From assembly GCF_003795125.1 (NCBI RefSeq), contig NZ_CP027783.1, forward strand, positions 372,001-436,000: DNA of 64,000 nt, read 5' to 3'. The stretch is from Tetragenococcus osmophilus (GTDB lineage Bacteria > Bacillota > Bacilli > Lactobacillales > Enterococcaceae). The position numbers and the translations under genes are program-made. Below are positions 15,530-52,013 of this stretch, piece after piece (position 1 is the first letter of the stretch; the number at the start of each line of letters is the position of its first letter). The notes under the pieces are model-generated. The model made no database searches and was not told the origin of the DNA. It saw only the letters and a list, made by a program, of their open reading frames with translations.

Positions 15530-15552
15530 GTATCAAAATAAATACAAAACAC

Positions 15553-15826
15553 GTTGATGAAGGAAGTAAAATTCGCTGAACTTTGAAAAAGAGAGCTTCG
15601 GTAGCTGAAAAGGAGTGAAAGTGCGGGAATTTGAAAATGGCTTTTGAGTGGGTACTTCAAAAATTTTTTAGAGGTACACGGATATCCCCGTTAAAAAGAT
15701 CGTAATATCGCACAATAGATGTGCCGTATTGACGCAGAGGTAAAAGCATTCGCTTTTGCGAAGTAAGGTGGTACCATGTATACATATACATCCTTAGAAG
15801 GAATTTTTCCTTCTAGGGATTTTTTT
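15553..15826 (+). ncRNA. T-box leader, probably methionine-specific
   Basis: The leader has the canonical T-box core AAGGTGGTACCATG at 15765-15778. It ends in a strong terminator at 15790-15826 (ATCCTTAGAAGGA pairing with TCCTTCTAGGGAT, then seven T). Stem I begins near 15553. On its 3' side, GAAAATGGCTTTTGAGTGG contains an ATG placed as the specifier, matching tRNA-Met. The downstream genes are metY and metA. Uncharged tRNA-Met should favour the antiterminator and allow methionine synthesis. Lactobacillales commonly use Met T-boxes in place of SAM riboswitches. A TGC (Cys) specifier is less likely from placement. Confidence 0.9.
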
Positions 15827-15848: not shown

Positions 15849-17123
15849 ATGTCAGAACAACAATTTGAAACATTGCAATTGCACGGAGGACAAAGTGTCG
15901 ATAAAGAAACAGGCAGTCGAGCAGCACCTATTTATCAAACAACGTCTTATGTTTTTGAAGATGCTGATCAAGCAGCCGGTCGATTTGGATTAAGTGATCC
16001 AGGAAATATCTATACTCGTATTACTAATCCGACCAATGCTGTTTTAGAAGAACGTCTCACCTTACTCGAAGGAGGCGTCGGTGCCATCGTAACGGCTTCA
16101 GGGTCTGCCGCAATTACTTATGCCATCCAAAATCTTGCGCAAAATGGTGACCATATTGTTTCAGCATCCAGTCTTTACGGGGGAACCTATAATTTATTCG
16201 CTCACACCTTGCCTACGCTGGGGATTACAACAACCTTTGTAGATTCAGATGAATCAGCGAATTTTTCAGCTGCTATTCAGGAAAATACAAAAGCTATTTT
16301 CCTTGAGTCTTTAGGCAACCCCGATATTAATATTGCAGATTTTGAAACAATCACTGACATTGCACATCAAGCAAATATTCCAGTGATTGTCGATAATACG
16401 TTTGCGACACCTTATCTCTTTAAACCCTTTGAACACGGCGTAGATATCGTGGTTCATTCAACAACGAAGTATCTAGGTGGACACGGTGTTGCATTAGGCG
16501 GCGCGATTATCGATTCAGGGAATTTTGATTGGACAAAAGGAAACTTTCCTCAATTTGTCGAACCAGATCCTAGCTATCATGGGACTTCTTGGGTTGAAGC
16601 GGCCGGCAATGCCGCTTTTATCACACGAGCTCGCACAGTACTGTTACGTGACACTGGGGCTGCCGCTTCACCATTTAACTCTTGGTTAATACTTTTAGGA
16701 ATAGAAACATTGTCACTTCGTTTAGAACGCCATGTTGAAAATGCCCAAAAAATTGCGGAATATTTAGAAAGTCATCCTAAAGTCGCTTGGGTCAATTATC
16801 CTGGTCTAAAAAGCAACAAGTATCATGAGTTAGCTCAAAAATACTTTCCTAAAGGTACAAGTGGTATTTTCACTTTTGGCCTTAAAAATGGCGCTGAAGC
16901 TGGAAAAAATTTAATTAATCAAGTGCAGTTGTTTTCATTATTAGCAAATGTTGGCGACGCAAAATCACTGATTATCCATCCTGCTTCCACCACTCATTCT
17001 CAATTGGATGAACAACAGTTAAAAGAAGCAGGCATTCAACCAGAAACGATTCGCTTGTCCATCGGTTTAGAAAATAGTCAGGACCTAGTCGCAGATTTAT
17101 CGCAAGCCTTGGAACGTATTTAA
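15849..17123 (+). CDS. metY: O-acetylhomoserine sulfhydrylase
   Basis: This 424-residue Cys/Met-metabolism PLP enzyme makes homocysteine (or methionine with methanethiol) from O-acetylhomoserine and sulfide. Key features are [10 protein letters not shown]-like N-terminus, [40 protein letters not shown], the PLP lysine K207 in [11 protein letters not shown], and the long insertion [20 protein letters not shown] typical of MetY rather than MetB/MetC. AAAGGAGG lies 7 bases before the ATG. It is the first gene behind the Met T-box and is followed 16 bp later by metA, whose product supplies the substrate. Confidence 0.94.
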
Positions 17124-21027: not shown

Positions 21028-22176
21028 CTATTTATTAAAACAAAATACACGGTACGCTTTTTCTGCTGCTCGTTCTATTAATTGCGAGGTTTGCGCTAAA
21101 GCTTCTTCTAAATTCATAGGCTTGTATATGATTTCTATAACCAAATCTATCCCTTCATTATACACTTTGCTCAAATCATAGTCTGCACTTCCAACGATCG
21201 CAATAACGGGTAAATGATGTTTTTTAGCCAGTTTAGCTACTCCCATAGGCGCTTTTCCTTGTAATGACTGACCGTCCATTTTGCCTTCGCCAGTTATAAC
21301 AAGTGAAGTTTCCTTCATTTTTTCTTCAATGGGTAACAAATTAAGTATTTCATCAATTCCACTCATCATCTTTGCTTCACAAAATGCAATCAAAGCTAAA
21401 CCCATACCTCCTGCCGCCCCTGATCCTTTTTTGTGAATTAATTTTGTATCAAGTGCTTCTTCAACTTTTTTTCCATAGTTCTCTAATATTCTATCTAGCA
21501 CGGGTAAATCTTCTTCTGAAGCCCCTTTTTGTGGACCATAAGTGTAAGAAGCTCCCTTTTCTCCACACAGGGGATTTGTAACATCAGAAAGAATAGTAAT
21601 AGAAACATCCTTAATTCTTTTATCCAAATCTTCCAATTCTATAGTAGATATTTGCTTTAATTCTTCAGCTCCAAATCCTATTTCTTTTCCATATAAATCT
21701 TTCAAAGATACTCCTAAAGCCTGGACTGCCCCTGCTCCGCCATCATTGGTTGCACTTCCACCAATTCCTATGAAAATTTCCTCAACTCCGTAATCAAGGG
21801 CCTTTTTTATCACTTCTCCAGTACCAAAACTTGTAGCTTTAAACGGATCCATTACATCGTTTTCAATTAAATGTAAACCAGATGCTTCTGCCATCTCAAT
21901 TATTGCAGTCTTTCCCTCATTAAGTAAACCAAACTTTGCCTTAACTGTGTTACCGTAAGGGCCTATGACATCTACATATTCGTATTCTCCATTTAGTCCG
22001 ATTACTAATGAATCTACCGTTCCTTCTCCACCATCAGCAATCGGAAATTTCAAGACTTCACATGCTGGATTCATTTTCAAAATCCCATTTTCTATATACT
22101 GTGCAACCTCATAAGAAGAAGCACTTCCTTTAAAAGAATCACTCGCGATAATTATTTTCTGTTTATTTATATCCAC
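21028..22176 (-). CDS. glxK: glycerate 2-kinase (GlxK/GarK family)
   Basis: This enzyme of about 382 residues has GarK-family motifs: IIIASDSFKGSASSYEVAQYI, FPIADGGEGTVDSL, GEVIKKALDYGVEEIFIGIGGSATNDGGAGA and TGEGKMDGQSLQGKAPMGVAKLAKK. It phosphorylates D-glycerate to 2-phosphoglycerate, the last step of glucarate/galactarate breakdown here. The open frame begins with a TTG at 22188, but that codon abuts the AAGGG ribosome binding site; the GTG at 22176 has 12-base spacing and is preferred, though the start is uncertain. It is the last gene of the glucarate island. It could also take glycerate released by the MngB-type hydrolase at 53-56 kb. Confidence 0.9.
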   Translation of the reverse strand: MDINKQKIIIASDSFKGSASSYEVAQYIENGILKMNPACEVLKFPIADGGEGTVDSLVIGLNGEYEYVDVIGPYGNTVKAKFGLLNEGKTAIIEMAEASGLHLIENDVMDPFKATSFGTGEVIKKALDYGVEEIFIGIGGSATNDGGAGAVQALGVSLKDLYGKEIGFGAEELKQISTIELEDLDKRIKDVSITILSDVTNPLCGEKGASYTYGPQKGASEEDLPVLDRILENYGKKVEEALDTKLIHKKGSGAAGGMGLALIAFCEAKMMSGIDEILNLLPIEEKMKETSLVITGEGKMDGQSLQGKAPMGVAKLAKKHHLPVIAIVGSADYDLSKVYNEGIDLVIEIIYKPMNLEEALAQTSQLIERAAEKAYRVFCFNK

Positions 22177-22260
22177 GCTATCAAACAACCCTTATCATAA
22201 TTTATTTACTAACGCTACTTTTGAACGAACTACATACTTTAGATTGCTTACGTCTAATTG

Positions 22261-22560
22261 CTACAAGCATTGTTCAGTACCATTCCTTATTTTCCATCCA
22301 TCTTTTTGAACGTCCTTTAAAATATTGCGATAGTCAGATATTGATCGTCCAACTACGATTTCTTCATAACTTTGCAACATCTTAGTAATATCGTCTCCGC
22401 CATGAATTTCACCTATCCCCTCGTTACCTGAATCATCCGTTAAAATAATAATATTTCTCGTAAATAATGGTCCATGGGCTCCACTTAAAGATAATAACAT
22501 ACTATCATAACCTGCTATTGGAACAACTTTAAGAGAAGTAACACTTGGAATTGTATTCAT
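22261..22560 (-). pseudogene. truncated second glucarate dehydratase (N-terminal 99 residues)
   Basis: The ATG at 22560 has an AGGAGG site and begins MNTIPSVTSLKVVPIAGYDS, clearly paralogous to the start of gudD at 26241: both have [25 protein letters not shown] and YKNIL/YRNIL. Similarity stops after about residue 85; the frame ends at 22261 with no barrel domain following. So the catalytic domain has been deleted. An intact tandem pair of glucarate dehydratase paralogs is known in enterobacteria (gudX-gudD), and the same arrangement probably existed here. A start further upstream at 22626 is spurious because it lies inside the preceding gene. Confidence 0.82.
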
Positions 22561-22603
22561 CGATAACCTCCTATTATTTTTCGTCTTTTTTGACATAAAA
22601 GAT

Positions 22604-23731
22604 TTACTTAAATTCTGCTGAGTCAACCATCAGTTTTCTCACTACATCGTTATTTAGCGTTAAGCCAATTCCTGGGCGATTAGGCACTTTCATTAGCCCA
22701 TTATTCATTTCAACACGTTCATTAAAAATACCCATTTTCTCAAACCATTCAAAGTGTTCTACCCATACTTCTCCGTTATAACAAGCTACTAGTGGCAAGT
22801 GAAGCTCCATGCTGTAATGAGGTGCTAGAACTAATTGCTGCTCTTCACAACGGTCGATTACTTTTTTATATTGTGTAATCCCACCTATTCTTGGTGCATC
22901 AAATTGGCAAACATCAAAAGCACGGCGATCTAAATATGGTAGACCTTCATTAAAACTAACTAACATTTCACCAGTGGCAATAGGTGTTTCTAAAGCACGT
23001 GACAATCGATAATGTCCCTCTACATCATAAGCACCAACAGGTTCTTCTAACCATACTAAGTCATATTCATCGAGGTATCTTCCTGCTTTTAATGCAGTAG
23101 AAACATCCCATTGCTGATTAGCATCTACCATTATAGGCACATCATCTCCGAGAGCTTTACGTAGGGCCTCCACTCGACGAACATCTTCTTTGTAATCTTT
23201 TTGTCCTACTTTTATTTTAATTCCGCCAGCACCTTCTGACAGTACTTTTTGAGCGTTATCAATCACTTCATCAATGCTATCTTGAAGAAAACCTCCTGAA
23301 GTGTTATAGCAAGGAACTTCTTCTTTGAATTGCCCTAAAAGTTTAGTAATTGAGAGCTCTGCCTTCTTGGCCTTCAAATCCCATAAAGCGATATCAAAGG
23401 GAGTAATTGCTTGTACAGCGACACCACCGGCCCCAATTGAAATACTTGACCATAGCAGTTTGTCCCATAGTCTGGAAATATCATCAGGATCTTCATCGAT
23501 AAGTAACGGTGCATACTCTTTTGCAAGGCTATATTGTGCCGGCCCGCCGTTACGCTTGCAATACACATATCCAAACCCTTCTCGTCCATCATTCGTACGA
23601 ATAATTGCACAAGTTATCATAACTTCTTTTAAAGGTGTTTGTTTCCCTGTAATTACTTTTGCATCACTTACTGGTTTTTCTAAAGGAACCTTTAGTAATT
23701 TAATTTCAATATTTTTAATGAAATCTGGCAT
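22604..23731 (-). CDS. enolase-superfamily sugar-acid dehydratase (galactarate/L-talarate type)
   Basis: This 375-residue enolase-superfamily enzyme has an N-terminal capping domain and a (beta/alpha)7 barrel. Catalytic and metal residues can be placed: K172 and K174 in GIKIKVG, D203 in VDANQQWD, E229 in LEEP, E255 in TGEM and H305 in APHYSMELH. A KxK motif plus barrel His and this length fit galactarate/L-talarate dehydratases rather than glucarate dehydratase (443 residues). The substrate is inferred. With garD reduced to a remnant nearby, this enzyme could be the only galactarate dehydratase of the locus, feeding the same aldolase. GGAG lies upstream of the ATG. Confidence 0.8.
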   Translation of the reverse strand: MPDFIKNIEIKLLKVPLEKPVSDAKVITGKQTPLKEVMITCAIIRTNDGREGFGYVYCKRNGGPAQYSLAKEYAPLLIDEDPDDISRLWDKLLWSSISIGAGGVAVQAITPFDIALWDLKAKKAELSITKLLGQFKEEVPCYNTSGGFLQDSIDEVIDNAQKVLSEGAGGIKIKVGQKDYKEDVRRVEALRKALGDDVPIMVDANQQWDVSTALKAGRYLDEYDLVWLEEPVGAYDVEGHYRLSRALETPIATGEMLVSFNEGLPYLDRRAFDVCQFDAPRIGGITQYKKVIDRCEEQQLVLAPHYSMELHLPLVACYNGEVWVEHFEWFEKMGIFNERVEMNNGLMKVPNRPGIGLTLNNDVVRKLMVDSAEFK

Positions 23732-23867
23732 TTATTTTCTCCTTTTCATAGCTATTAATTTTTTTATGATTCTTACTTATTCAAAACTTCCGGCTTAATT
23801 ATACCGATTTTTCCCAGCCTCAATAACTTCATTAGTACCTCTAATTTATATAAGCAAAATAAGCTAT

Positions 23868-24764
23868 TTACAGCAAATTAGCATCTTTTATTGTCCTCTT
23901 CATATCTTCAAGAACCTTCCCTTTTGACTCTGGTGTAGGAAGAACTGACTTACCTACCTCCATTCCTAACAAATTAGCCATATCTTTTGTTGCTGCAGGG
24001 AAACTAGCGGCATCTTGGGATATGCGAACTGGATTTAATTTAAATTGTAGTTCGAGTGCCTTTTCATAATTGCCTTCCACATAGTTATTATAGATATCGG
24101 TTACAAGTTCAGTAAACATATTCCCTGTTGACATAACTGCGCCTACAGCACCAATACAAAGTCCTGGATAAGTAATAGTATCTTTACCTGTAAACACACG
24201 GAATCCAATATCATTATTTCGTCTAATTACTTCGCTTGTATAGGTTAAATCACCGCTAGAATCCTTCATTCCAACAATATTTTTAACATTATTAGCTAAC
24301 TTTTCTACATTATTTAAGCTAATAGCATACCCTGTTTTCCCCGGATTATTATACAAAAGAACAAATTTCTCAGGAACTGCTTCTGCTATCGTTTTAAAAT
24401 GGTTATACAAGGCTTCTTCAGTAGGTCTTATAAACATTGGTTGCAGTATGGAAATTCCATTTATGTCAAGTTGAGCTGCTTTTTTAGCCAAACGAATTGC
24501 ATGCTTTGTACGAATAGCACCAATACCAAAATATAGTGGTACCCGTCCCTTTGTTTGATCAATAATAATTTTCATTCCTTCTATTTGCTCATCTTCATCA
24601 AACATATAAAATTCACTATTACTACCAAAAGCCAAAATTCCGTGTATACCATGAGTAATTACATGTTCAACAATTTTTCTCAACTTTTTTTCATCAATGT
24701 TTTCATCTTCATCAACTGGCGTAAGTAATGGTACAATAATACCTTTTAAATCTTCTAATTCCAT
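23868..24764 (-). CDS. DHDPS/NAL-family aldolase, probable 5-keto-4-deoxyglucarate aldolase
   Basis: This 298-residue class I lyase has the Schiff-base K167 in GMKDSSGD and Y138 in LLYNNPGKT. GSNSE at 47-51 replaces the usual GTTGE in the substrate loop. In the glucarate pathway, 5-keto-4-deoxyglucarate is cleaved to pyruvate and tartronate semialdehyde, normally by GarL, a class II metal aldolase of another fold. No garL is visible, but tartronate semialdehyde reductase and glycerate kinase are present, so this enzyme most likely fills the step. The alternative, 5-keto-4-deoxyglucarate dehydratase as in B. subtilis YcbC, is less likely because that family lacks the YNNP motif. The start has AGGAG. 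Confidence 0.8.
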   Translation of the reverse strand: MELEDLKGIIVPLLTPVDEDENIDEKKLRKIVEHVITHGIHGILAFGSNSEFYMFDEDEQIEGMKIIIDQTKGRVPLYFGIGAIRTKHAIRLAKKAAQLDINGISILQPMFIRPTEEALYNHFKTIAEAVPEKFVLLYNNPGKTGYAISLNNVEKLANNVKNIVGMKDSSGDLTYTSEVIRRNNDIGFRVFTGKDTITYPGLCIGAVGAVMSTGNMFTELVTDIYNNYVEGNYEKALELQFKLNPVRISQDAASFPAATKDMANLLGMEVGKSVLPTPESKGKVLEDMKRTIKDANLL

Positions 24765-24909
24765 TCTTTTTACTCCTAATCATTTTTTAATACTTAATCG
24801 ATGGTTATTAACTTGACAACAGTTTTAAAATTTAGGAATACACATTTTTTAAAAAGAGTTTGATTGTGAAAATTTATGTGTATTCCTAATAATCATCATT
24901 TATAATCCA

Positions 24910-26241
24910 TTATCTAACAAAAGATGGCTTTTTATTATCAAAAGTCCAATTAGGGACAAGATATTTCATTGCTATTGAATCATCTCTTGTACCAAGATTG
25001 TTTTGAATATATAGTTTATTTGCTTCTTTAATTTTAGCCATATCCATTTCAATACCTAACCCAATCATATCTCTAGGCACATCAATACTTCCATTTTCAA
25101 TCTTCATAGCGTTTTTCGTTAAATCTTGTCCATCTTGCCAAATCCAATGTGTGTCTATAGCATTTACGTTTCCTGGTGCTGCAGCAGCAGTATGAGCAAC
25201 CATAGCTAAAGAAATGTCAAAATGATTATTGGAATGTGCTCCCCATGTCATTCCAAAATCATGAGATAATTGTGCCACTCTAACAGAACCTTCCATTGTC
25301 CAAAAATGGGGATCAGCTAACGGAATATCTACACTGTCTAAGTTTACAGAATGTCTCATTTGTCTCCAATCTGTAGCCACCATATTAGTCGCTGTTGGAA
25401 GTCCTGTAACTTTCTTAAACTCTGACATTATTTCCCGTGAAGAGAATTCATCTTCTGCTCCACAAGGGTCTTCAACATATGTCAAAGTACCAAGCATATC
25501 TTCACATAGTTCAATTGCTTCATTTAAGGTCCACGCACCATTTGGATCTAGTGTAATTCGAGCATTGGGATAAGTTTCTTTTAATGCTTTTATTGCCTCT
25601 ATTTCTTCTTTTCCATCAAATACGCCGCCTTTTAATTTAAAGTCTTTAAAACCATAACGATCGTAAGCGGCTTTTGCTAGTTGAACAATTGAGTCAGGAG
25701 TGATCGCTTCCTCTCTTCGAAGTCTTCCCCAGTCGTCAGAAGTATCGTCATTTTCAATATATGGTAAATCAGTTTGATCTTTATTTCCTACATAAAAAAG
25801 GTAACCAAGGACTTCTACTTTTTCACGAACTTGTCCATCGCCCATTAAAGCAGCTACTGGAACTTCAAAATGCTTACCAAGTAAGTCTAATAAAGGAGCT
25901 TCAATAGCTGTCATAACATGTACGGTAGTTCGTAGATCAAAAGTTTGTGCACCTCTTCCATCGATATCCAGCTTGATATATTTTTCCTTAATATCACGTA
26001 AAATATTCTTATATTCTCCAATACTTCTTCCAACAACGAGCTCTTTAGCATTCATTAACGTATTAGTTATTTTTTGTCCGCCGGGAACTTCTCCCACGCC
26101 TATTTCACCACTATCTGCTTCCAAAATTACAATGTTGCGGGTAAAAAAGGGGCCATGTGCTCCGCTTAAATTTAATAACATACTATCGTAGCCTGCTACT
26201 GGATAAACAGTCATTTCTTTTACTTTAGGAGTTGTATTCAC
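24910..26241 (-). CDS. gudD: glucarate dehydratase
   Basis: This 443-residue enolase-superfamily enzyme dehydrates D-glucarate (and usually L-idarate) to 5-keto-4-deoxyglucarate. The match to E. coli GudD is close through the C-terminal half: [40 protein letters not shown], the catalytic His in [14 protein letters not shown] and THWIWQDG. The KxK pair is K202 and K204 (FKLKGG), and D232/N234 (LDPNGAW) begin the metal site. The start is a GTG at 26241 with GGGAG upstream. It lies between garR and the aldolase, in pathway order. Confidence 0.95.
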
Positions 26242-26306
26242 TTTTAATTCTCCCTTTCTTTGTTATTTTTATTTAGTATTTTCAATGCTTTACTCCTTAG
26301 CTACTT

Positions 26307-27194
26307 TTATTCACTTTCAATAGTAGTATTATTAATTTTTTCAAAATATTGGGCAATGCTTGCGTGATCTTTTTCTTCAAGTCCGTCTATTTTAAGTGCC
26401 TGCATAATTTCCATTAATTGAGCAGTAATTGGAATAGAAGCATTTACATCATGTGAAGTATCTAAAGCGTTCTGTAAGTCTTTAATATGGAGCTGTATTC
26501 TAAATCCTGGTTCAAAATCTCTATCTAAAATCATAGGCATTTTAGCATCCATTACTGTGCTTCCAGCTAGCCCACCACGAATAGCTTCAAAAACTAGTTT
26601 TGGATCTGCTCCAGCTTTTTTGACAAAAGACATTGCTTCACCCACTGCTGCTATATTTGTAGCAACCACCATTTGATTAGCTAATTTAGTAATATTTCCT
26701 GCGCCGGCTTCTCCAACGTAAGTTACTGAGCCAGCCATAGTCATCATTAAGTCGTAATATTTATTAAATACTGATTCATCTCCTCCAACCATTACAGCGA
26801 TAGTTCCATCGATGGCCTTTGGTTCTCCCCCAGAAACTGGAGCATCTAAAAAGTCAACATTTAGCTCTTTTAACTTAGTAGAGAATTCCTGACTCGCTAC
26901 AGGAGAAATAGAGCTCATATCAATAACTGTTTTTCCAGCTGACAAACCTTCAGCAATACCATTTTCATCAAAAAGCGCAGCATTTACATTAGGTGAGTTT
27001 GGTAACATTGTGATAACAATATCTGTTTTTTCTGCTACTTCTTTTCCACTGCCTGCTTTATTCGCTCCTTCGTTAGCAAGTTCAGTTACTGAGTTCTCAT
27101 TGAAATCAAAAACTATAACATCATAACCTGCTTTTAATAGATTTTTTGCCATAGGCTTGCCCATAATTCCTAGTCCGATAAATCCTATATACAT
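26307..27194 (-). CDS. garR: tartronate semialdehyde reductase
   Basis: This 295-residue beta-hydroxyacid dehydrogenase begins with the NAD(P)-binding MYIGFIGLGIMGKPMAKNLL. It contains DAPVSGGEPKAIDGT (substrate loop), the catalytic Lys in GNITKLANQMVVATN, and DLQNALDTSHDV near the C-terminus. It reduces tartronate semialdehyde to D-glycerate. The family also includes 3-hydroxyisobutyrate dehydrogenase, but the GLGIMG start and the neighbouring dehydratase, aldolase and glycerate kinase define the role. AAGGAG precedes the ATG. The next minus-strand gene upstream is the garD remnant, then the permease. Confidence 0.92.
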   Translation of the reverse strand: MYIGFIGLGIMGKPMAKNLLKAGYDVIVFDFNENSVTELANEGANKAGSGKEVAEKTDIVITMLPNSPNVNAALFDENGIAEGLSAGKTVIDMSSISPVASQEFSTKLKELNVDFLDAPVSGGEPKAIDGTIAVMVGGDESVFNKYYDLMMTMAGSVTYVGEAGAGNITKLANQMVVATNIAAVGEAMSFVKKAGADPKLVFEAIRGGLAGSTVMDAKMPMILDRDFEPGFRIQLHIKDLQNALDTSHDVNASIPITAQLMEIMQALKIDGLEEKDHASIAQYFEKINNTTIESE

Positions 27195-27554: not shown

Positions 27555-28943
27555 TTAGCCTACAAAAGCATTAGCAACTAATACTACTATTAACGCAGTC
27601 CCTGCCCCTACAAATGAAATTACAGTTTTACACATAAATTGATCTTTTATACTTTTTAAACCATACAGGCCATTAAATACCCAAAATCCACTATCGTTAA
27701 AATAGCTAAAAGATACTGCCCCAGCACAAGTTGACATTCCTACAAGTGTAGGATCTAACCCTAGCTGAGATACTAACGGCGCTGTTAAAGTAGCTGCAGT
27801 TACTAAGGCCACTGTCGCGCTTCCTAAAGAAATTCGCATCATTGCAGCAATAATGAATGGGATTAAAATCCCTGGAATATTTAATGAAATGATAGCTTCT
27901 CCTAGTGCATTCCCAATTCCAGCATCTTGAACTACATAACCTAAAGCACCACCAGCTCCTGTAACAAGCATAATCATCCCAGTTGTTTTTATTCCATCTT
28001 CCATAGCAGTCATAAGTTCATCTTTCGTAAATCTTTTCGCAAGTCCATATATAGAAAGAACTAAACCTATGATCAAAGCGATAATTGGATTACCAATGAA
28101 TCCAGTTACGGTAGTTAAAGGGCCTTGTATATTTAAAAAATTCATTACAGTATCAGAAAGAATAAAAATAATTGGAACTATTATTGGTGCAAAAGACATC
28201 ATCGTATTAGGCAAGTTTTTTTCTTCCATCATTTGGTTAATATTATCAATAGACTTAATATATTCTTCCTTATAATCTTTACGTATATACTCTGTTCCAT
28301 CCTCATTAGGCACTTGATAGATTTTTTTACCTACCCAAATACAATAGATCGTTGAAGCAATAATTGTTGGTATCGTTAGAGCTATTCCCGTAATAATCAT
28401 AATTCCAAGATCAATATTTAATATCCCAGCTACGGTTAGAGGCCCCGGAGTAGGTGGAACAAACACATGTGTTAATTGAAGACCAGTAGCAAGAGCTAAA
28501 CCAAGCCCCACCACGCTTTTCCCAGTAGTCCTTGAAAGAGACTTAGCTAGCGGGGTTAAAATAACTAGTCCAGAGTCTGAAAAAACTGGAATAGCAACTA
28601 TATATCCTGCGAAACTTAACGCCCATTCTTCTTTTCCCTGGCCAATCAATTTAATGATTGAAAAGGCCATCCTCTCAGCTGCTCCGGATTTTTCTAAAAC
28701 TGCTCCCATCATGACGCCTAACCCGATAATAATACCGGTACTTCCAAGAGTATTTCCGAAGCCTTCAGTTATAGACTCCATTACATTTTCAAAAGGCAGT
28801 CCTCCGATTAATCCTGTAACAATAGAGGCAATTAATAATGCTACAAATGTATGAATACGTGTTTTCATTGCTAGAAATATCAAAGTTGCTATACCAACTA
28901 ATAAACCAACCAATAGTTGCGTGCTACTAACTGTTGCTTCCAT
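27555..28943 (-). CDS. GntP-family permease, probable glucarate/galactarate uptake
   Basis: This 462-residue membrane protein has about 12-14 hydrophobic segments. It carries GntP-family signatures: GFGNTLGSTGIIIGLGVMMGAVLEKSGAA, GIPVFSDSGLVILTPLAKS-like VAIPVFSDSGLVILTPLAKSL, THVFVPPTPGPLTVAGIL and SLGSATVALVTAATLTAPL. Members are proton symporters for gluconate and related sugar acids. It is the first structural gene of the glucarate island, so a sugar diacid is the likely substrate. AGGAG lies before the ATG. The 280-bp leader contains a cre-like site, and a terminator-type leader element lies further upstream. Confidence 0.87.
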   Translation of the reverse strand: MEATVSSTQLLVGLLVGIATLIFLAMKTRIHTFVALLIASIVTGLIGGLPFENVMESITEGFGNTLGSTGIIIGLGVMMGAVLEKSGAAERMAFSIIKLIGQGKEEWALSFAGYIVAIPVFSDSGLVILTPLAKSLSRTTGKSVVGLGLALATGLQLTHVFVPPTPGPLTVAGILNIDLGIMIITGIALTIPTIIASTIYCIWVGKKIYQVPNEDGTEYIRKDYKEEYIKSIDNINQMMEEKNLPNTMMSFAPIIVPIIFILSDTVMNFLNIQGPLTTVTGFIGNPIIALIIGLVLSIYGLAKRFTKDELMTAMEDGIKTTGMIMLVTGAGGALGYVVQDAGIGNALGEAIISLNIPGILIPFIIAAMMRISLGSATVALVTAATLTAPLVSQLGLDPTLVGMSTCAGAVSFSYFNDSGFWVFNGLYGLKSIKDQFMCKTVISFVGAGTALIVVLVANAFVG

Positions 28944-29097: not shown

Positions 29098-29220
29098 TAA
29101 AATTACAAAGCAAATATAAACTATGAAAAAGTTTCTGTAACTAACCGCTTTTCACTTAAACTAATTACTTAGCCTACTTACAAAACCAACGCTATTATCC
29201 TTTAATTAAAAATAACCAAA

Positions 29221-29289
29221 TAAAAAACCCAATTTTTCCCCACTAAAGTTGGAAAAAATTGGGTTAAGCCTTCTATCTAGTTACCCCCC
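29221..29289 (-). promoter_or_regulatory. leader attenuator A (RAT-like element plus terminator)
   Basis: Read on the minus strand, GGGGGGTAACT-AGATAGA-AGGCTTAACC (29289-29262) runs into a terminator: CCCAATTTTTTCC pairs with GGGGAAAAATTGGG, followed by six T. The closest relative in the window is leader B at 51391-51465, which shares AGGCTTAACCCAA, TAGT-GG in the loop and the same stem. The layout (conserved block whose 3' end is the 5' arm of a terminator) is that of BglG/LicT antiterminator targets, but the sequence diverges from the known consensus. A different protein or ligand may act here. Confidence 0.55.
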
Positions 29290-29482
29290 TTATTCGTTTT
29301 TAAATAGTTCAATTAGAACCTTTACTCATCAATAATGGTTATTTTTAATAAGAAATAAAGCCGTTTTTTCATTAGTTACTATCTTTTTTTTATTACTTTT
29401 CTCTACAATTAACGATCTACGGCGAACAAATCTGCTATAAATTCCAATTGTGAAAAAATTAATAATTATATGAAAAAGCGTA

Positions 29483-29504
29483 TTGATATAGATATCTATA
29501 TCAA
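29483..29504. promoter_or_regulatory. 22-bp perfect palindromic operator before mini-XRE gene 1
   Basis: TTGATATAGAT is followed directly by its exact reverse complement. A -10 box TATAAT lies at 29524-29529, so the palindrome covers the -35 region. The same half-site occurs before the second mini-XRE gene. Autoregulation is inferred. Confidence 0.65.
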
Positions 29505-29564
29505 ATCTAAAATTATTATATACTATAATAATTTTAAATGCAACTAGCGAAAGGGCTTATTTTG

Positions 29565-29792
29565 ATGAAAACAAAAAGAATTGTGGTTCATATATTAGAA
29601 CTAATTGAACAAGAAAATATAAGCTTGCGGGAATTAGGTAGACAAGCAGATATCCAAATTTCTGCGTTAAGCCCACTTGCTAGTGGGAAAAAGCAACGAA
29701 TAGACCTGGGACATCTTAAAAGAATCGCCGAGGCCTTAGACATTGATGACATGAATAAAATCATCTCCATTGAAGACGAAGAAGACGTATAG
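29565..29792 (+). CDS. mini-XRE helix-turn-helix regulator 1
   Basis: This 75-residue protein is little more than an XRE/Cro-type helix-turn-helix: ISLRELGRQADIQISALSPL, then SGKKQRIDLGHLKRIAEALDIDDMNKIISIE. An upstream ATG at 29538 lacks a ribosome binding site; the ATG at 29565 has AAAGGG 9 bases before it and gives MKTKRIVVHILELIEQEN. It is paralogous to the next gene: both end in IDLGHL-RIAEAL--DMN-IISIE. A palindromic operator overlaps its promoter. Such small proteins often act as autoregulated partners in a two-gene switch. Being beside the glucarate island and aldA, it may regulate them, but this is only a position-based guess. Confidence 0.78.
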   Translation: MKTKRIVVHILELIEQENISLRELGRQADIQISALSPLASGKKQRIDLGHLKRIAEALDIDDMNKIISIEDEEDV

Positions 29793-29904: not shown

Positions 29905-30159
29905 ATGAAAGCTGGATACCAACCTAAAAAGATTGTTCTTCACATAGATAAACTTGCTAGGGAAAACTATGATTCGCTAAGAGATATGGGGATAGACACA
30001 GACATTCAAATTTCTTCACTAAGCCATTTAGCTAGAAATGACCGAAAACGTATTGACCTTGGTCACCTTCAAAGAATTGCAGAAGCTTTAAACCTTACCG
30101 ATATGAACGAAATTATCTCAATTGAAAATGATGATTCTTATAAAGATGATGAAATTTAA
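29905..30159 (+). CDS. mini-XRE helix-turn-helix regulator 2
   Basis: This 84-residue protein is a paralog of the preceding gene, with SLRDMGIDTDIQISSLSHLA, DRKRIDLGHLQRIAEALNL and TDMNEIISIEND. It carries an extra acidic tail (SYKDDEI). GGAAGG lies 7 bases before the ATG. Separate terminators after each gene and an operator-like sequence before each suggest that the two are transcribed independently but controlled by the same protein or by each other. Recognition-helix residues differ little (IQISALSPLA against IQISSLSHLA), so shared operator binding is plausible. Confidence 0.78.
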   Translation: MKAGYQPKKIVLHIDKLARENYDSLRDMGIDTDIQISSLSHLARNDRKRIDLGHLQRIAEALNLTDMNEIISIENDDSYKDDEI

Positions 30160-36222: not shown

Positions 36223-37062
36223 TCAACTACTTTTATTCATTAAACGGTTAATATGCACACCCAAATAAGCAACTTCTTCTTCTGATATGGTTTTACCATA
36301 CATTTTAGTTAAATAGTCTTGAACTTTAATACCAATTTCCATTGCCGAAGGATATAGTGTCCACATTTGTTTGTACAACTCACTTCCACCCTCGTCATCC
36401 ATCAATTTTCCAGTATAAAATCGTTCCACAAAATATTTAACATGGGTAATAAAACGAAGATAATGTACTGAATCTTCATCAATTTCAGTTTGAATAGAGT
36501 ACCTAACCATATTTACAATACCGCCAATCATTTTAGCAGACGCCAAACTATCCGTTGAGTCACTTTCTGACTGGGCGTTAATAAGATGGAAAGCAACGTT
36601 AGCTGCTTCTTCTTGCGGGAGTGTTATGTCAAAATACTGATTAATCATCTCTACTGCTTGAGTACTAATAGCATATTCTTTCGGGTAATAATTTTTGATT
36701 TCCCAATATAAACGATTTGCGATGTTGATTCCTTTTTGATAACGGTCCAAGGCAAAATGAAGATGATCTGTTAAAGTGAGAAAAATATTATTATTTAATT
36801 TTGTATTTAAACGTTCTTCAGCTAATGCAACAATTTTTTTAGTCAGTTCAAAAAAAGCTAGCGGAATATCATCTATTAGTTCCAAAATATATTCATTTTT
36901 GCTTTCATTTAGAGGAATGAATATTTTATCAATATCATTTTCATCGAGTAATTCTTCTTTTTTACGAGAAAAACCAATGCCTTTTCCTAAAACGATCATT
37001 TCTGAACCATCTTTATCAGCCAACACAACACTAGAATTCAACACTTTCTTAATCGTTAGCAC
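36223..37062 (-). CDS. licT: LicT/BglG-type transcription antiterminator
   Basis: This 279-residue protein has an N-terminal RNA-binding CAT domain (LTIKKVLNSSVVLADKDG through LVLGKGIGFSRKK-like VLGKGIGFSRKKEE, residues 1-55) and two PTS regulation domains (about 70-165 and 175-275). Conserved His residues lie in TDHLHFALDR, EAANVAFHLINAQ, LRFITHVKYFVERF and LGVHINRL. It binds the RAT RNA in the operon leader and blocks the terminator when sugar is present and HPr phosphorylation is right. The start is a GTG at 37062 with AGGAGG. It is the last gene of PTS-glucosidase-licT, so it amplifies its own expression. Confidence 0.94.
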   Translation of the reverse strand: MLTIKKVLNSSVVLADKDGSEMIVLGKGIGFSRKKEELLDENDIDKIFIPLNESKNEYILELIDDIPLAFFELTKKIVALAEERLNTKLNNNIFLTLTDHLHFALDRYQKGINIANRLYWEIKNYYPKEYAISTQAVEMINQYFDITLPQEEAANVAFHLINAQSESDSTDSLASAKMIGGIVNMVRYSIQTEIDEDSVHYLRFITHVKYFVERFYTGKLMDDEGGSELYKQMWTLYPSAMEIGIKVQDYLTKMYGKTISEEEVAYLGVHINRLMNKSS

Positions 37063-40473: not shown

Positions 40474-40530
40474 AAAAAAGGCAGAACCAAATACACTAGG
40501 AATAGTCTTCCTAACATAAAAGGTCCTGCC
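40474..40530 (-). terminator. leader terminator of the bgl operon
   Basis: On the minus strand GGCAGGACC (40530-40522) pairs with GGTTCTGCC (40488-40480), followed by six T. The 5' arm is part of the RAT element, so the two structures exclude each other. Confidence 0.88.
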
Positions 40531-40550
40531 TGCACTACCAGTCACATGCC
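40522..40550 (-). promoter_or_regulatory. RAT antiterminator element for LicT
   Basis: The 29-nt minus-strand sequence starts GGCATGTGACTG, has a five-base loop GGTAG, then TGCAGGCAGGACC. It agrees with the BglG/LicT consensus (GG-n4-ACTG … GCAGGC-n3-ACC) in length and at the conserved positions. It overlaps the 5' arm of the leader terminator. LicT encoded by the same operon is the expected ligand. Confidence 0.9.
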
Positions 40551-46946: not shown

Positions 46947-48116
46947 TTAAATTGCTTCGTTTTCCAATGCTGTTATAAACTGCGATATTGCTCTTTCTAA
47001 CAACTCTTTTGGGCAGCCTATATTCATTCTTATATAATTTTTTCCTTCTCCTCGAAAAATAGTACCTTCATGTATATCCATAGCATATTTTTCTCTCAAT
47101 ACTTCTCGTATTTCACTGGAATTATTACACGCACTGTCTTTTACCTTTATCCAAACTAGAAAAGAGGCTTGACTTTTAACTATCTCACAGCGACTCTGCT
47201 TCTTAAGTGCCGTCTCTAAATAACGATAATTTTGTTCGATTCGTTGAATAATAGAATTTATGTAACTGTACGAATCTTTTATGTTAGTATATATTGCTTC
47301 CATCATAGTAATTGAAAAGATATCCAATTCTGAAGCAAAGTTCTTTTTTAGCCCTTCGACTAGTTTTTTCTGTAAACTTTGATCACGGGTAATCATAAAA
47401 GAAGCTTTTAACCCAGCCACATTAAACGTTTTTGCCGGTGAATGAAGTACAACCATTTTATTTTTATAAGAAAAACTTGTATCTAGTATTGAATAAAATC
47501 TGTTACCATCCAAGATTAAGTCGCTATGAATTTCATCTGAAATTAATAATAAAGTATATTTTTTTGTTAAGTTAATAATTTGAGATAAAACATCCCCACT
47601 CCATACTTTTCCAATGGGATTATGAGGATTACATAAAGTAATTGCTGAAATTTCTGAGTTTTCTTTTATCGTCTTTTCTAATAACTTAAAATCAATTCTG
47701 TAATTTTCTTCTTTAACTATAGGAATTTCAATTACTTCAATTCCCAAGTCTTCTGCTATTTTCATTAAAGGCGGATAAAGCGGAGTAAAGACTATAATAC
47801 TACCATTTTTCGGTAGGCAAGTTTGTAATATAATAGAATAACCATGGAGAACACTATTACAAAATAAAATATTGTCTTTTTGTAGCAAATTAACAAATTT
47901 ATATTTATACCATTCAATGATTCCTAGTTTTATTTTTTCAGAAATATCTGTATAGCCAAAATAATTTTGTTTTGCTCTTTGAATGAAACTTTTTTCTAAA
48001 AATTCAGGTGATTTAATATCCATATCAGCAATCCACAATGGCAGAATTTCACTCGATTTATAACGTCCCCATTTTTTTGAAGAGGTAGCCACGCGCGTTT
48101 TTCTCAATTTGTCCAC
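46947..48116 (-). CDS. MalY/PatB-type PLP enzyme (C-S lyase or aminotransferase)
   Basis: This 389-residue fold-type I PLP enzyme has LPLWIADMDIKSPEF at the N-terminus, LCNPHNPIGKVW, LLISDEIHSDLIL (PLP-binding Asp) and the PLP lysine K229 in HSPAKTFNVAGLKASF. This is the MalY/PatB subgroup, which usually has cystathionine beta-lyase (C-S lyase) activity. The start is a GTG at 48116 with GGAGG. It is the last gene of the mannose-family PTS operon, after the SIS protein. A PLP lyase in a sugar PTS operon is unusual: it suggests that the imported sugar carries an amino-acid or thio-conjugate part. This is an inference from context. Confidence 0.87.
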   Translation of the reverse strand: MDKLRKTRVATSSKKWGRYKSSEILPLWIADMDIKSPEFLEKSFIQRAKQNYFGYTDISEKIKLGIIEWYKYKFVNLLQKDNILFCNSVLHGYSIILQTCLPKNGSIIVFTPLYPPLMKIAEDLGIEVIEIPIVKEENYRIDFKLLEKTIKENSEISAITLCNPHNPIGKVWSGDVLSQIINLTKKYTLLLISDEIHSDLILDGNRFYSILDTSFSYKNKMVVLHSPAKTFNVAGLKASFMITRDQSLQKKLVEGLKKNFASELDIFSITMMEAIYTNIKDSYSYINSIIQRIEQNYRYLETALKKQSRCEIVKSQASFLVWIKVKDSACNNSSEIREVLREKYAMDIHEGTIFRGEGKNYIRMNIGCPKELLERAISQFITALENEAI

Positions 48117-48134
48117 ACTATTCTTACCTCCAAT

Positions 48135-48839
48135 TTAAATATGAAAAATACGATCGCTATATTGATTTTCAATTTCTAAATTGTATTCAAACCCACCATC
48201 AACATTGGCACTTTTATAGATTGGCGGTTCGAAATCTTTTTTAGCCATCATAGAGTAGGCTTCATACATTGTTTGTTGCAATAATAAAGTAGCCGCAAAT
48301 GAAGAAGTTCCACAAACTTTTGAATTAACCCCTTCAATGCTCAAAGCTGCGTCTCCATAACCAGAGTGATTATCTAGTACAACATCAGCAAATTCATATA
48401 ATAGTTTTCCACTACTATGTCTAGAAGTGGATTTTTTCGAAATATCTAGAGCAGTTACAACAATTAATTTGTTCCCATGATCTTTCACCCATTTTGCGAT
48501 TTCAATACCCATCGGATTACGTCCGGAATTTGAAATCAAAAAGAACACATCGTGTGGTTTAATCATTACTCTATGCGTCAGTAATTCGCCAACGCCTTCA
48601 CATTGCTCGTACATTCCTCCTGCAGGGTCCATAATTACTTTAGAAGGTATTAAACCGCCAGCTCTTCCACTAATTTCAAGTGCTCCTGCATGTGAATGGC
48701 CACTACCAAACGCTTGAATAATTCCACCATTCATAATTCCATCTGCTACTATTTCTGCTGCTTGAGAAATATTATTTTGTTCATATTCTTCCAGTAGATT
48801 TGTTAATCTTTTACACTCTTCAAAGAACGCTAAACTCAT
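48135..48839 (-). CDS. SIS-domain sugar-phosphate protein (UPF0309)
   Basis: This 234-residue protein has an SIS domain: [26 protein letters not shown] and [35 protein letters not shown], with the phosphosugar-binding Ser residues in the GSGHS and SNSGRN loops. It matches UPF0309, a group without an assigned reaction but often next to PTS or amino-sugar genes. AAAGGAG precedes the ATG. Placed between the PTS membrane subunit and the MalY-type lyase, it probably isomerises or cleaves the phosphorylated product. Confidence 0.85.
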
Positions 48840-48861
48840 GTCTATTCTCCTTTGTTTTTTA

Positions 48862-49671
48862 TTATTCTAAAATATTTAAATTGTATAATAGGATCGATAA
48901 CAACATAACTAATAATATTGCTTTAGTTGAACTCATCTTCTTTCTGCCTAACAACCAATAAACTAACCCCACTAACGCTGCAGGGATTAACGCAGGCATA
49001 ATTTGATCTAATATCTCTTGTAGTTCCAACTCTACTTCACCTGATTGATAAACGAATGAAACGTCTGCAGTTACGACTGTTGGGATTAACGCTCCAACAA
49101 CAGTAATACCTAACAATATAGCTGCATCTGTTAGTGCATTCAATTTATCACTAAATTCATTAACCAGTTTTAACCCTTGCCTATAACCAAATGGCATTAA
49201 AAACATACGACCCACGATAACAGCAACATTTACTAAAACCCATATAATAACGCCTGTGACGTTTCCTTGCCTACCCATATATGCTGCAATTGAACCACAA
49301 ATTGTAGGAATGAGAACACCGAAAATTGTATCGCCCACACCTGCAAACGGGCCCATTAAACCTGCTTTAATCCCAGTAATAACTTCCTTTGCTTCCATCC
49401 CCTCTTGTTCTTCAATAGCCATATCAATTCCAAGTATTATATGTCCTACCATCGGATTTGTATTAAAAAATTGATTATGAGTTTCCATTATCTCTTTCAA
49501 TTGATTTTCATCATGTCCATACTTTTTCTTAAGGAATGGAAGCATAGTATACAAATAGCCAGTCGACATCATTCGTTCATAATTCCAACAGATTTGGCTT
49601 GCTAATAACCATCGATAACTTGCTTGAAATAAATCTTTTTTTGTTACTAGGTTATTCTTCATACTCTCCAT
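48862..49671 (-). CDS. mannose-family PTS enzyme IID
   Basis: This protein of about 269 residues is a IID subunit: [36 protein letters not shown] at the N-terminus, [27 protein letters not shown], and [25 protein letters not shown]. The frame extends to 49701, inside the IIC gene. The ATG at 49671 ([12 protein letters not shown]) has GGAG 9 bases upstream, and the IIC stop lies inside, an overlap of 20 bp. IID and IIC together form the membrane channel of the sugar permease. Confidence 0.9.
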
Positions 49672-50461
49672 CTTCGTACTCTCCTTCAGAAATATTTCCA
49701 TTTAACTGCGAGCCCGCATTTTTTTGCATTACTTTTTGATTTGCTTGTTTAAAATGAATAATCGCTAAAGCTAGGCCAATAATCGCCACTCCTAACATTG
49801 GTGTTTCTAGGTAGGAGGCAAAGAAAAAACCAACGAGTAAATAAGGGAAATAGCTTGTTGTTGGAAGGTATTTTAATAACACTGCTATACCTACAACAGG
49901 TAGAAGGCCACCAGCAACTTCCAACCCGCCCATTAACCAATCAGGCATTTTATTGACTATGATATCAACTACATTTTGTCCAAAAATCAGCATAATAGCT
50001 ATAGGAATTGCTCTGGAAAGGCCCCATGGGATAATGCCTAATACTATATTTTTAGCTACTTTTTTAGAATCGGCTTGTTCAATGCTTTTATCCGTTCGAT
50101 GTAAAAAGAGTGTATTTGTAAAACGAGCTAATACATCTAATTGCACCATTAGTATTCCTACAGGAACCGCCAAGGCTAGCGCAAATTCCAAACCATTACC
50201 AGTAGTATGAGCAAATACTGTACCTACAATTGCACCTGAAGTAAAATCAGGAATAGAAGCGCCTCCATAAGTACCTACTCCTAATACCATTAATTGTAAA
50301 GTAGCTCCAATCATTAATCCTAATTGAATATCCCCTACAATAATTCCCACAATGGTACCTACAATTACGGGGTATTGCATACCTATATTCAGAGATATAC
50401 TATCAAGAATAGAGAAAAAAGATAACAAAATTAAAATTATAATTTGCCATGTAGCAAGCAT
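49652..50461 (-). CDS. mannose-family PTS enzyme IIC
   Basis: This 269-residue membrane protein has about eight helices: SISLNIGMQYPVIVGTIVGIIVGDIQLGLMIGATLQLMVLGVGTYGGASIPDF is the family signature region, and DVLARFTNTLFLHRTDK lies near residue 110. The C-terminal tail is acidic and repetitive ([10 protein letters not shown]). AGGAGG precedes the ATG. It forms part of an A-B-C-D operon in order. The substrate of this PTS family cannot be read from the sequence; known members take mannose, sorbose, N-acetylgalactosamine, glucosaminate or fructose-amino acids. Confidence 0.92.
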   Translation of the reverse strand: MLATWQIIILILLSFFSILDSISLNIGMQYPVIVGTIVGIIVGDIQLGLMIGATLQLMVLGVGTYGGASIPDFTSGAIVGTVFAHTTGNGLEFALALAVPVGILMVQLDVLARFTNTLFLHRTDKSIEQADSKKVAKNIVLGIIPWGLSRAIPIAIMLIFGQNVVDIIVNKMPDWLMGGLEVAGGLLPVVGIAVLLKYLPTTSYFPYLLVGFFFASYLETPMLGVAIIGLALAIIHFKQANQKVMQKNAGSQLNGNISEGEYEDGEYEE

Positions 50462-50465
50462 GAGT

Positions 50466-50945
50466 TCACACCTCCTTTAATAAATTCATAAAGTTTCTCT
50501 TTTCATCATTTGGTGTCATCTGCGCGAATAACTCTACATGACGCTTATTTAAAACTTCAAATTTTTCTATGTCTTCTTCTGTAAGACTAATTGACTTAGT
50601 GATCTGCTTTGAATCTTTTTTACTGGACATATTTCCAACATTGACTTCTATCAGGTCTAAATTATTTTTTAATAGCGCAACTAAAGTAGTGGGATTTTTT
50701 ACTAATATAAATACTCGTTCGTTTTCATACTTACCCGCATTGATTCTGTTAGCAGCTCCCCTAGTCGTTAAAATACTTAATTTACACGAGCTAGGCTTTG
50801 CCATCTTTAAAACATCTTTTTCCATCTCATCATGAACAATTTCATCATCTATTACAATGATACGGTCGGCTTTTAAATGGTTAGTCCACATTGTAGCCAC
50901 TTGTCCATGAATTAAACGTTCATCTATTCGAATACTAACTATCAT
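50466..50945 (-). CDS. mannose-family PTS enzyme IIB
   Basis: This 159-residue protein has the phosphorylated His at about position 15 in RIDERLIHGQVATMW and the family region DRIIVIDDEIVHDEMEKDVLKMAKP. It passes phosphate from IIA to the sugar. It lies 4 bp from the IIC gene and 12 bp after the IIA gene. The start has GAGGCGAG upstream. Confidence 0.93.
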   Translation of the reverse strand: MIVSIRIDERLIHGQVATMWTNHLKADRIIVIDDEIVHDEMEKDVLKMAKPSSCKLSILTTRGAANRINAGKYENERVFILVKNPTTLVALLKNNLDLIEVNVGNMSSKKDSKQITKSISLTEEDIEKFEVLNKRHVELFAQMTPNDEKRNFMNLLKEV

Positions 50946-50957
50946 TTTTCACTCGCC

Positions 50958-51308
50958 TCACAGTTCTTTTATGCTATTAATAGCACTCTCAATACTACTA
51001 CTAACCGATTCTCCCATAATTAAAGAAAGCAACATAGTCAAGTTCAAACCAGTAAAAACTCTTACTTGTTTATGTTGATTTTTATACAACAATGCAGCGT
51101 TTGCTGGACTACCACCAGGGATATCACTTAAAATTAAAATATCTTCATCAGTATCTTCTGCGATATTTTCATAAGAATTATAAATATCTTTTACTGACAT
51201 ATCTTCCGTAAAATCTACCGTATAGATATTTTTTTGTTTTCCCCCAATCATTTCAGCACTGTCTAAAAGATTCTTCCCATATTTGTTATGTCCACTCAGT
51301 ATAATCAT
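50958..51308 (-). CDS. mannose-family PTS enzyme IIA
   Basis: This 116-residue protein is a IIA of the mannose type: MIILSGHNKYGKNLLDSAEMIGG with the active His at position 7, and ILILSDIPGGSPANAALL. It is a little shorter than the usual 130-140 residues because the C-terminal linker is missing. It is the first gene of the operon (IIA-IIB-IIC-IID-SIS-MalY), 80 bases downstream of leader B. GAGG precedes the ATG. Confidence 0.92.
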   Translation of the reverse strand: MIILSGHNKYGKNLLDSAEMIGGKQKNIYTVDFTEDMSVKDIYNSYENIAEDTDEDILILSDIPGGSPANAALLYKNQHKQVRVFTGLNLTMLLSLIMGESVSSSIESAINSIKEL

Positions 51309-51390: not shown

Positions 51391-51465
51391 ATAAAAAATC
51401 CCAAATCTTTCTCCAACTACAATGAAGAAAAATTTGGGTTAAGCCTAGCTAAACAGTTGCTCCCC
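51391..51465 (-). promoter_or_regulatory. leader attenuator B (RAT-like element plus terminator)
   Basis: On the minus strand GGGGAGCAACTG-TTTAGCT-AGGCTTAACC (51465-51437) leads into a terminator: CCCAAATTTTTC pairs with GAAAGATTTGGG, then six T. It is 29 nt long, the same as a BglG/LicT RAT, with GG, ACTG, AGGC and AACC in register, but other positions differ. It shares stem, loop (TAGT-GG) and flank with leader A at 29221-29289 upstream of the glucarate permease. It lies 83 bases before the PTS IIA start. Antitermination by an unidentified protein is inferred. Confidence 0.6.
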
Positions 51466-51686
51466 TTTATATTTTAATTATTTATAAATGGCGTTACATA
51501 TCGAGCTCTTATCAATAAGCTTATCGCATGACTAATATATCACTAAAACGAATTAAAAGTCAACTATATTTTATAAAACAGTATTTATAATTTGTATATT
51601 TGCTATTTAAGTACCTCTATAATTATTATTAATTATTCATTTCAGCTAATAAAATTTATCTTTCATTTAAACATAGGAGATTTATT

Positions 51687-52013
51687 ATGAAATTAGAACA
51701 AGAAACAGAAATTGGAAATCAAATCGCTATGTATCGAGAAAAAGCTGGTTTAACTCAACAAAAATTAGGCGATAAAATCGGTCTAACACAGGATCAAATT
51801 GGATTGTTAGAACGTGGGCAACGAAATTGGAAGTTGAGTACTCTGATAAAACTAACAAATGTACTCGATATAAATTTAGTTACTCTTTTTCAGCCTTTTG
51901 AACAAAGTGATGAAAAGGTAAATCAACTCATTAAAAAAATTGAACATAGTCCTAAAAAAGAAGTTTTTATTAAAGCATTTAATGATATTTTGGATGCCTC
52001 AAAGGAAAACTAA
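51687..52013 (+). CDS. XRE-family regulator
   Basis: This 108-residue protein has an N-terminal helix-turn-helix (QIAMYREKAGLTQQKLGDKIGLTQDQIGLLERGQRNWKLSTLIKLTNVL, residues 12-60) and a short C-terminal segment that may dimerise (VNQLIKKIEHSPKKEVFIKAFNDIL). AGGAG precedes the ATG. It is divergent from the mannose-family PTS operon, with the leader B promoter region between, so it may regulate that operon. The 51309-51686 gap is otherwise AT-rich with no coding signal. Confidence 0.85.
   Translation: MKLEQETEIGNQIAMYREKAGLTQQKLGDKIGLTQDQIGLLERGQRNWKLSTLIKLTNVLDINLVTLFQPFEQSDEKVNQLIKKIEHSPKKEVFIKAFNDILDASKEN

What the first reader, a model, noticed from the sequence alone, without database searches (positions are those of the whole stretch)
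29221..29289. Twin leader elements upstream of the glucarate permease and the mannose-family PTS
Leaders A (29221-29289) and B (51391-51465) share AGGCTTAACCCAA, a matching terminator with TAGT-GG in the loop, and a GGGG-n-AACT 5' block. Layout and length equal those of BglG-type RAT/terminator pairs, but the sequence is off-consensus, unlike the perfect RAT of the bgl operon at 40522-40550. Two operons 22 kb apart may share a new antitermination system or RNA ligand.
Basis: partly seen in the sequence, partly recalled or inferred. Interest (0 to 1): 0.62.

Follow-up and report, generated by a model that had tools for sequence, protein, structure and literature searches.

The report
Antitermination leaders for PRD-less CAT proteins
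The two look-alike leaders are RNA on/off switches of the RAT type, part of a sugar and sugar-acid regulon found across the salt-loving food bacterium Tetragenococcus, and in its relatives they sit next to an unusually small switch-binding protein (a lone CAT domain without the usual sugar-sensing part) that this particular genome seems to have lost.

Summary
Leaders A and B are minus-strand antiterminator/terminator elements with the core GGGGRGYAACU-N(4-10)-RGGCUUAACC(C/U). The genome, a Tetragenococcus, carries four. The core has the layout of a RAT (the BglG/SacY/LicT target). Aligned with ordinary RATs, pair 5-25 (element A numbering) forms in 28 of 28 sequences through five pair types.

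Outside the genus, eight of nine covariance hits lie directly behind a CAT-domain gene, six of them a gene encoding only CAT (about 55 aa, no PRD). Two more species and two exact-pattern hits (Ligilactobacillus pobuzihii, Oceanobacillus neutriphilus) show the same CAT-only gene with the RAT, flanked by small XRE regulators. In T. halophilus Tet1 the only CAT proteins are CAT-only, and one gene immediately precedes the A-type leader.

So this is a RAT subtype served by stand-alone PRD-less CAT antiterminators, a new variant of a known mechanism. The twist: this genome has lost every CAT-only gene (A keeps promoter and operator, but the CAT gene has eroded), so A and B are orphaned or read by LicT, its only CAT protein. 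Binding and regulation are inferred, not measured.

The parts
29259..29289 (-). RAT-like antiterminator core A: GGGGGGTAACTAGATAGAAGGCTTAACCCAA
   Evidence: CM E=3.1e-8
29219..29265 (-). intrinsic terminator A, whose 5' arm AACCCAA overlaps the core
29290..29484 (-). leader stretch that in T. halophilus Tet1 holds a 53-aa CAT-only gene; decayed with stops in two relatives, eroded here
   Evidence: alignment, tblastn
29485..29502 (-). palindrome GATATAGATATCTATATC, probable operator of the divergent XRE protein
   Evidence: nearly the same in L111
29515..29543 (-). promoter of A: TTGCAT-17-TATAAT
   Evidence: sequence only
29538..29792 (+). small XRE (HTH_26) regulator, divergent from A; likely start 29565
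29905..30159 (+). second small XRE (HTH_26) regulator
27555..28943 (-). GntP-family permease, first gene behind A
21028..27194 (-). rest of the A operon: tartronate semialdehyde reductase, glucarate dehydratase, DapA/KdgD-like protein, talarate/galactarate dehydratase, glycerate kinase
51434..51465 (-). RAT-like antiterminator core B: GGGGAGCAACTGTTTAGCTAGGCTTAACCCAA
   Evidence: CM E=1.7e-6
51392..51438 (-). intrinsic terminator B
51513..51526 (-). palindrome-like CGATAAGCTTATTG just behind the B promoter, possible XRE operator
   Evidence: sequence only
51534..51563 (-). promoter of B: TTGACT-18-TATATT
   Evidence: sequence only
51687..52013 (+). XRE (HTH_3) regulator, divergent from B
46947..51308 (-). 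B operon: mannose-family PTS IIA, IIB, IIC, IID, SIS-domain sugar isomerase, PatB-like PLP enzyme
36223..37062 (-). LicT-type CAT-PRD-PRD antiterminator, the only CAT-domain protein found in the genome
40522..40550 (-). consensus RAT of the bgl operon (comparison)

Best explanation
A and B are RAT-type antiterminator/terminator leaders of a subtype (GGGGAG...CUUAACC) whose cognate protein in relatives is a stand-alone, PRD-less CAT RNA-binding protein of 53-63 aa. Transcription starts at an upstream promoter, which a divergent XRE repressor probably controls through a palindromic operator. Without CAT protein the 3' half of the core (AACCCAA) pairs into the terminator and RNA stops before the operon. 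When the CAT protein is made it should clamp the RAT hairpin as a dimer, keep AACCC out of the terminator and let polymerase through. Because the protein lacks PRDs, control must come from how much of it is made (XRE) rather than from PTS phosphorylation. In Tetragenococcus one such protein can serve several operons in trans. In this genome the CAT-only gene has been lost, so A and B are orphaned (mostly terminated, basal read-through) or are read by LicT. Shown by sequence: RAT architecture and covariation, mutually exclusive terminator, regulon, gene linkage, CAT loss. Inferred: binding, dimer action, XRE control, expression state.
For: RAT fold: on 15 element sequences plus 13 RATs (12 beside PRD antiterminator genes, and the window's bgl RAT), 92% of cells pair, 22 two-sided changes (shuffled mean 7.6; 0/500), the pair at alignment columns 5-26 (5-25 in element A) standard in 28/28 as AU, UA, GU, GC, UG. 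Three-way change: B and its G099 ortholog (same PTS operon) differ by G1-C31 to A1-U31 with the matching terminator change, and U11-A21 to C11-G21. Conserved leaders in Tetragenococcus, often upstream of PTS or GntP genes and often divergent from an XRE gene. Independent linkage: the RNA-only model's nine hits outside the genus include six within about 70 nt behind a CAT-only ORF (four of them 3-9 nt behind its stop) and two directly behind a PRD antiterminator gene; two further species have the RAT 1 nt behind the CAT-only stop; L. pobuzihii and O. neutriphilus carry XRE, CAT-only and element together. CAT identity: Pfam CAT_RBD only, PDB matches SacY 1AUU (E=1.5e-9) and LicT 1L1C. In T. halophilus Tet1 (G098) the only CAT proteins found are two CAT-only ones, one just upstream of the A-type leader. 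CAT loss: no CAT-only gene in G000, G101 or G102; in G101 the orthologous GntP leader has lost its terminator 3' arm.
Against: No binding or expression data. This genome has no CAT-only gene, yet A, B and a third leader keep every invariant core position. G000 and G101 are too similar (about 4% in one leader region, 0% in another) to say whether that is selection or recent loss. Covariation within the element set alone is modest because the core is nearly invariant. Two CAT copies in G042 look damaged.
Confidence: 0.85

Rival explanations
1. A and B are ordinary RATs bound by this genome's LicT, so they form a wider LicT regulon and the CAT-only link in relatives is secondary.
For: LicT is the only CAT protein in this genome and the cores are intact. 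A PRD antiterminator with a large trans regulon is known: NagY of E. faecalis, PMC12502629.
Against: G098 has the leaders but no PRD antiterminator; G101 has leaders and one PRD antiterminator whose CAT sequence differs from LicT. The bgl RAT differs at the lower-stem positions (GGCAUG..CAGGACC against GGGGAG..CUUAACC), the CAT-only genes sit beside the GGGGAG subtype, and classical RATs sit beside PRD genes in the same genus.
Confidence: 0.3
2. In this genome the elements are relics: with the CAT-only protein gone they act only as attenuating terminators.
For: CAT gene eroded at A and absent elsewhere; terminator arm deleted in the sister species; the GntP leader of G000 and G101 has an altered, otherwise invariant G.
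Against: Three of four cores keep all invariant positions and the operon ORFs are open. Compatible with recent loss, so not exclusive of the main explanation.
Confidence: 0.45
3. A small-molecule riboswitch shared by sugar-acid and PTS operons.
For: Conserved leader with a terminator upstream of metabolic operons.
Against: No Rfam match at these places; core of only about 31 nt with the loop free to vary; targets are chemically unrelated; the same RNA lies beside CAT genes in several other genera.
Confidence: 0.03
4. The conserved core is a DNA operator for the divergent XRE regulator rather than an RNA element.
For: XRE genes flank many leaders.
Against: GntP-type leaders lack an adjacent XRE gene; the core lies between promoter and terminator; pairs covary as RNA; separate palindromes lie next to the promoters.
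Confidence: 0.04

Closest known systems
RAT sites of BglG/SacY/LicT antiterminators (LicT-RAT; bgl, sac operons)
   Same: About 29 nt, two short helices with asymmetric internal loops, 3' part overlapping an intrinsic terminator, directly behind CAT genes in several genomes.
   Different: Lower stem GGGGAG..CUUAACC instead of GGAUUG..CAAAACC, upper stem often only two pairs, element used by several unrelated operons in trans.
BglG/SacY family antiterminator proteins (LicT, SacY, NagY)
   Same: The partner protein is their N-terminal CAT RNA-binding domain (Pfam CAT_RBD; PDB matches 1AUU and 1L1C).
   Different: Both PTS regulation domains (PRD) are missing, so PTS phosphorylation cannot control it in the known way.
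NagY regulon of Enterococcus faecalis (PMC9981650, PMC12502629)
   Same: RAT/terminator leaders in the same bacterial family, several trans targets.
   Different: NagY is a BglG/SacY-type (PRD) antiterminator; its RAT sequence is different.

Membership tests
RAT (BglG/SacY-type antiterminator site) | overlaps an intrinsic terminator so that the two structures exclude each other | tested here: met
   shared AACCC; three-way change between B and its ortholog
RAT (BglG/SacY-type antiterminator site) | imperfect hairpin with two asymmetric internal loops and the RAT pairing scheme | tested here: met
   28-sequence alignment with classical RATs, 92% paired, covariation 0/500 shuffles
RAT (BglG/SacY-type antiterminator site) | match to the classical sequence consensus | tested here: inconclusive
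   B differs at 3 specified positions, A not found with up to 4; intermediates occur
RAT (BglG/SacY-type antiterminator site) | genetic association with a CAT-domain protein | tested here: met
   met in relatives; in this genome only a distant LicT
RAT (BglG/SacY-type antiterminator site) | bound by a CAT dimer, giving read-through | not testable with these tools
   needs EMSA or a reporter
BglG/SacY antiterminator protein family (for the CAT-only partner) | CAT RNA-binding domain | tested here: met
   Pfam CAT_RBD; PDB SacY, LicT
BglG/SacY antiterminator protein family (for the CAT-only partner) | two PRD domains | tested here: not met
   ORFs of about 53-63 aa end after the CAT domain
Riboswitch | described RNA family or conserved aptamer fold | tested here: not met
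   no Rfam match at A or B; loop not conserved

The most novel reading that the evidence does not exclude
A mobile regulatory module made of a small XRE repressor, a PRD-less CAT antiterminator and its own RAT subtype exists in several Bacilli genera and replaces PTS-phosphorylation sensing by transcriptional control of a constitutively active CAT domain, acting on a multi-operon regulon in Tetragenococcus.
Probability: 0.6. Interest if true: 0.72.

Novelty: new variant of a known kind. Interest (0 to 1): 0.6.

Why it matters
CAT/RAT antitermination is described as controlled through PRD domains phosphorylated by the PTS. Small natural proteins that are only the CAT domain, with their own RAT subtype and flanking XRE regulators, would show a second way to run this switch and provide a minimal protein-RNA pair for testing RAT specificity. 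It also gives Tetragenococcus, a soy- and fish-sauce bacterium, a predicted sugar and sugar-acid regulon, and a case of leaders outliving their regulator. No description of such stand-alone CAT proteins was found in the open-access library; papers outside it were not searched.

Tried and rejected
Shared TAGT-GG terminator loop: not conserved. Rfam: only a T-box elsewhere in the window. G048 pattern hit: no terminator behind it, chance. G278 model hit: inside coding sequence with a large insertion, chance. Stand-alone CAT on viral contigs: none. Plasmid tblastn hits: the two opened are full-length antiterminator genes, not CAT-only (E. faecalis L097, Priestia L098); the other 31 records were not opened, most of those listed carrying LicT or PRD annotations. 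Selection on cores after CAT loss: G000 and G101 too similar to test. R2 over 398 sampled Bacilli genomes at E<=0.005: no genome but this one, so the subtype is rare. The residues MGRLR put in front of the L064 CAT sequence were my guess at an N-terminus; only the part from VIQV on is from the DNA.

Full report
Observation. On the minus strand, A reads GGGGGGTAACTAGATAGAAGGCTTAACCCAA followed by a terminator and B reads GGGGAGCAACTGTTTAGCTAGGCTTAACCCAA followed by a terminator. The shared 13-mer occurs exactly twice in the genome and the reversed control pattern does not occur even with one mismatch allowed. A heads a GntP permease plus glucarate/galactarate operon, B a mannose-family PTS operon.

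Distribution. The strict pattern occurs in 7 of 9 genomes of the same genus and, apart from one chance hit, in none of the 16 other genera of the family. The genome collection scan names the genus as Tetragenococcus and adds two outsiders, Ligilactobacillus pobuzihii and Oceanobacillus neutriphilus. This genome is closest to T. muriaticus among those compared and is probably T. osmophilus (inference). Covariance models found further leaders: this genome has four (A, B, one before a PTS operon at C1:1598381, one before a GntP gene at C1:1743411); G102 has neither an element nor any CAT protein.

It is a RAT. Aligned to the RATs beside PRD antiterminator genes and to the window's bgl RAT, the core has the same helices and the same 3-by-1 internal loop. 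One pair of the middle helix (positions 5-25 of element A, columns 5-26 of the alignment) is A-U in most of the new subtype, U-A in the classical one, and G-U, G-C or U-G in others, formed in 28 of 28. Leader B and its ortholog in G099 differ by paired changes, one of them matched also in the terminator, which supports both alternative structures.

The partner. A Pfam search for the CAT RNA-binding domain in the genus gave, besides PRD antiterminators, a family of ORFs that are only CAT. One (L024) lies between the XRE-facing promoter and the A-type leader in T. halophilus Tet1. The same place holds decayed CAT sequence with stops in G103 and G097, and in the window only the promoter and operator remain. 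A second CAT-only locus with flanking small XRE genes exists in G097, G098, G099, G100, G103 and G104 and is missing here. The neighbouring manganese catalase gene of G100 (named from sequence, my reading) is also absent from G000 and G101.

Independent test. The RNA-only model was run on 395 Lactobacillales genomes. Of nine hits outside Tetragenococcus, four (genus g4) are 3-9 nt behind the stop of a CAT-only ORF and before PTS genes, two (G042) are also just behind CAT-only sequence, two are directly behind full PRD antiterminator genes, and one is chance inside coding sequence. The CAT-only profile then found two more species with XRE, CAT-only, a RAT 1 nt behind the stop, a terminator and PTS genes; one of them also carries nearly the same operator palindrome as the window's A locus. 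L. pobuzihii has two elements in tandem, the second with a fuller CUGC-GCAG upper stem. The model was built from leaders without any CAT information (its 23 sequences include the L. pobuzihii and Oceanobacillus elements), so this linkage in other genera is strong evidence that the element is a CAT target.

Mechanism. Known for the family: a CAT dimer clamps the RAT and prevents terminator formation, and PRD domains put it under PTS control (PMC3369936). That CAT domains alone can be active is from my own knowledge of the SacY and LicT literature. A CAT-only protein should therefore be active whenever made; the flanking XRE proteins and the operator-like palindromes beside the promoters suggest transcriptional control (inference).

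This genome. LicT is its only CAT protein. Either LicT reads A and B, or the leaders are orphaned after a recent loss. The sister genome G101, also without CAT-only, has deleted the terminator 3' arm of the GntP leader, as expected if losing the activator favoured losing the terminator. The two genomes are too alike to test selection on the cores.

Verdict. Real, not a riboswitch; a RAT subtype served elsewhere by PRD-less CAT proteins. New variant of a known kind.

Noticed in passing
window 15545-15798 +: T-box leader (Rfam RF00230, 112.8 bits) upstream of the ORF at 15849-17123.
   Followed up: no
L075 (T. muriaticus) against L079 (this genome): Deletion removes the 3' arm of the GntP leader terminator while the rest of the aligned leader region is identical.
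   Followed up: partly
L093 7548-7710: Two RAT/terminator elements in tandem between a CAT-only gene and a mannose-type PTS gene in L. pobuzihii.
   Followed up: partly
L036, L039, L042, L086: CAT-only gene flanked on both sides by small XRE genes; two XRE proteins of one family around one antiterminator is unexplained.
   Followed up: no
L025, L073, L074, L080 upstream of the elements: Sequences like TGAAAGCGCTAAAA resemble catabolite-repression (cre) sites shortly before the RAT core.
   Followed up: no
L060 and L076 near the elements: Partial second copies resembling the 5' half of the core (GGGGAGTAGCTG, GGGGAATAACTA).
   Followed up: no
L064 and L071 (G042): CAT-only copies that look damaged: one with transposase-like genes at its 5' end, one with an internal duplication.
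   Followed up: no
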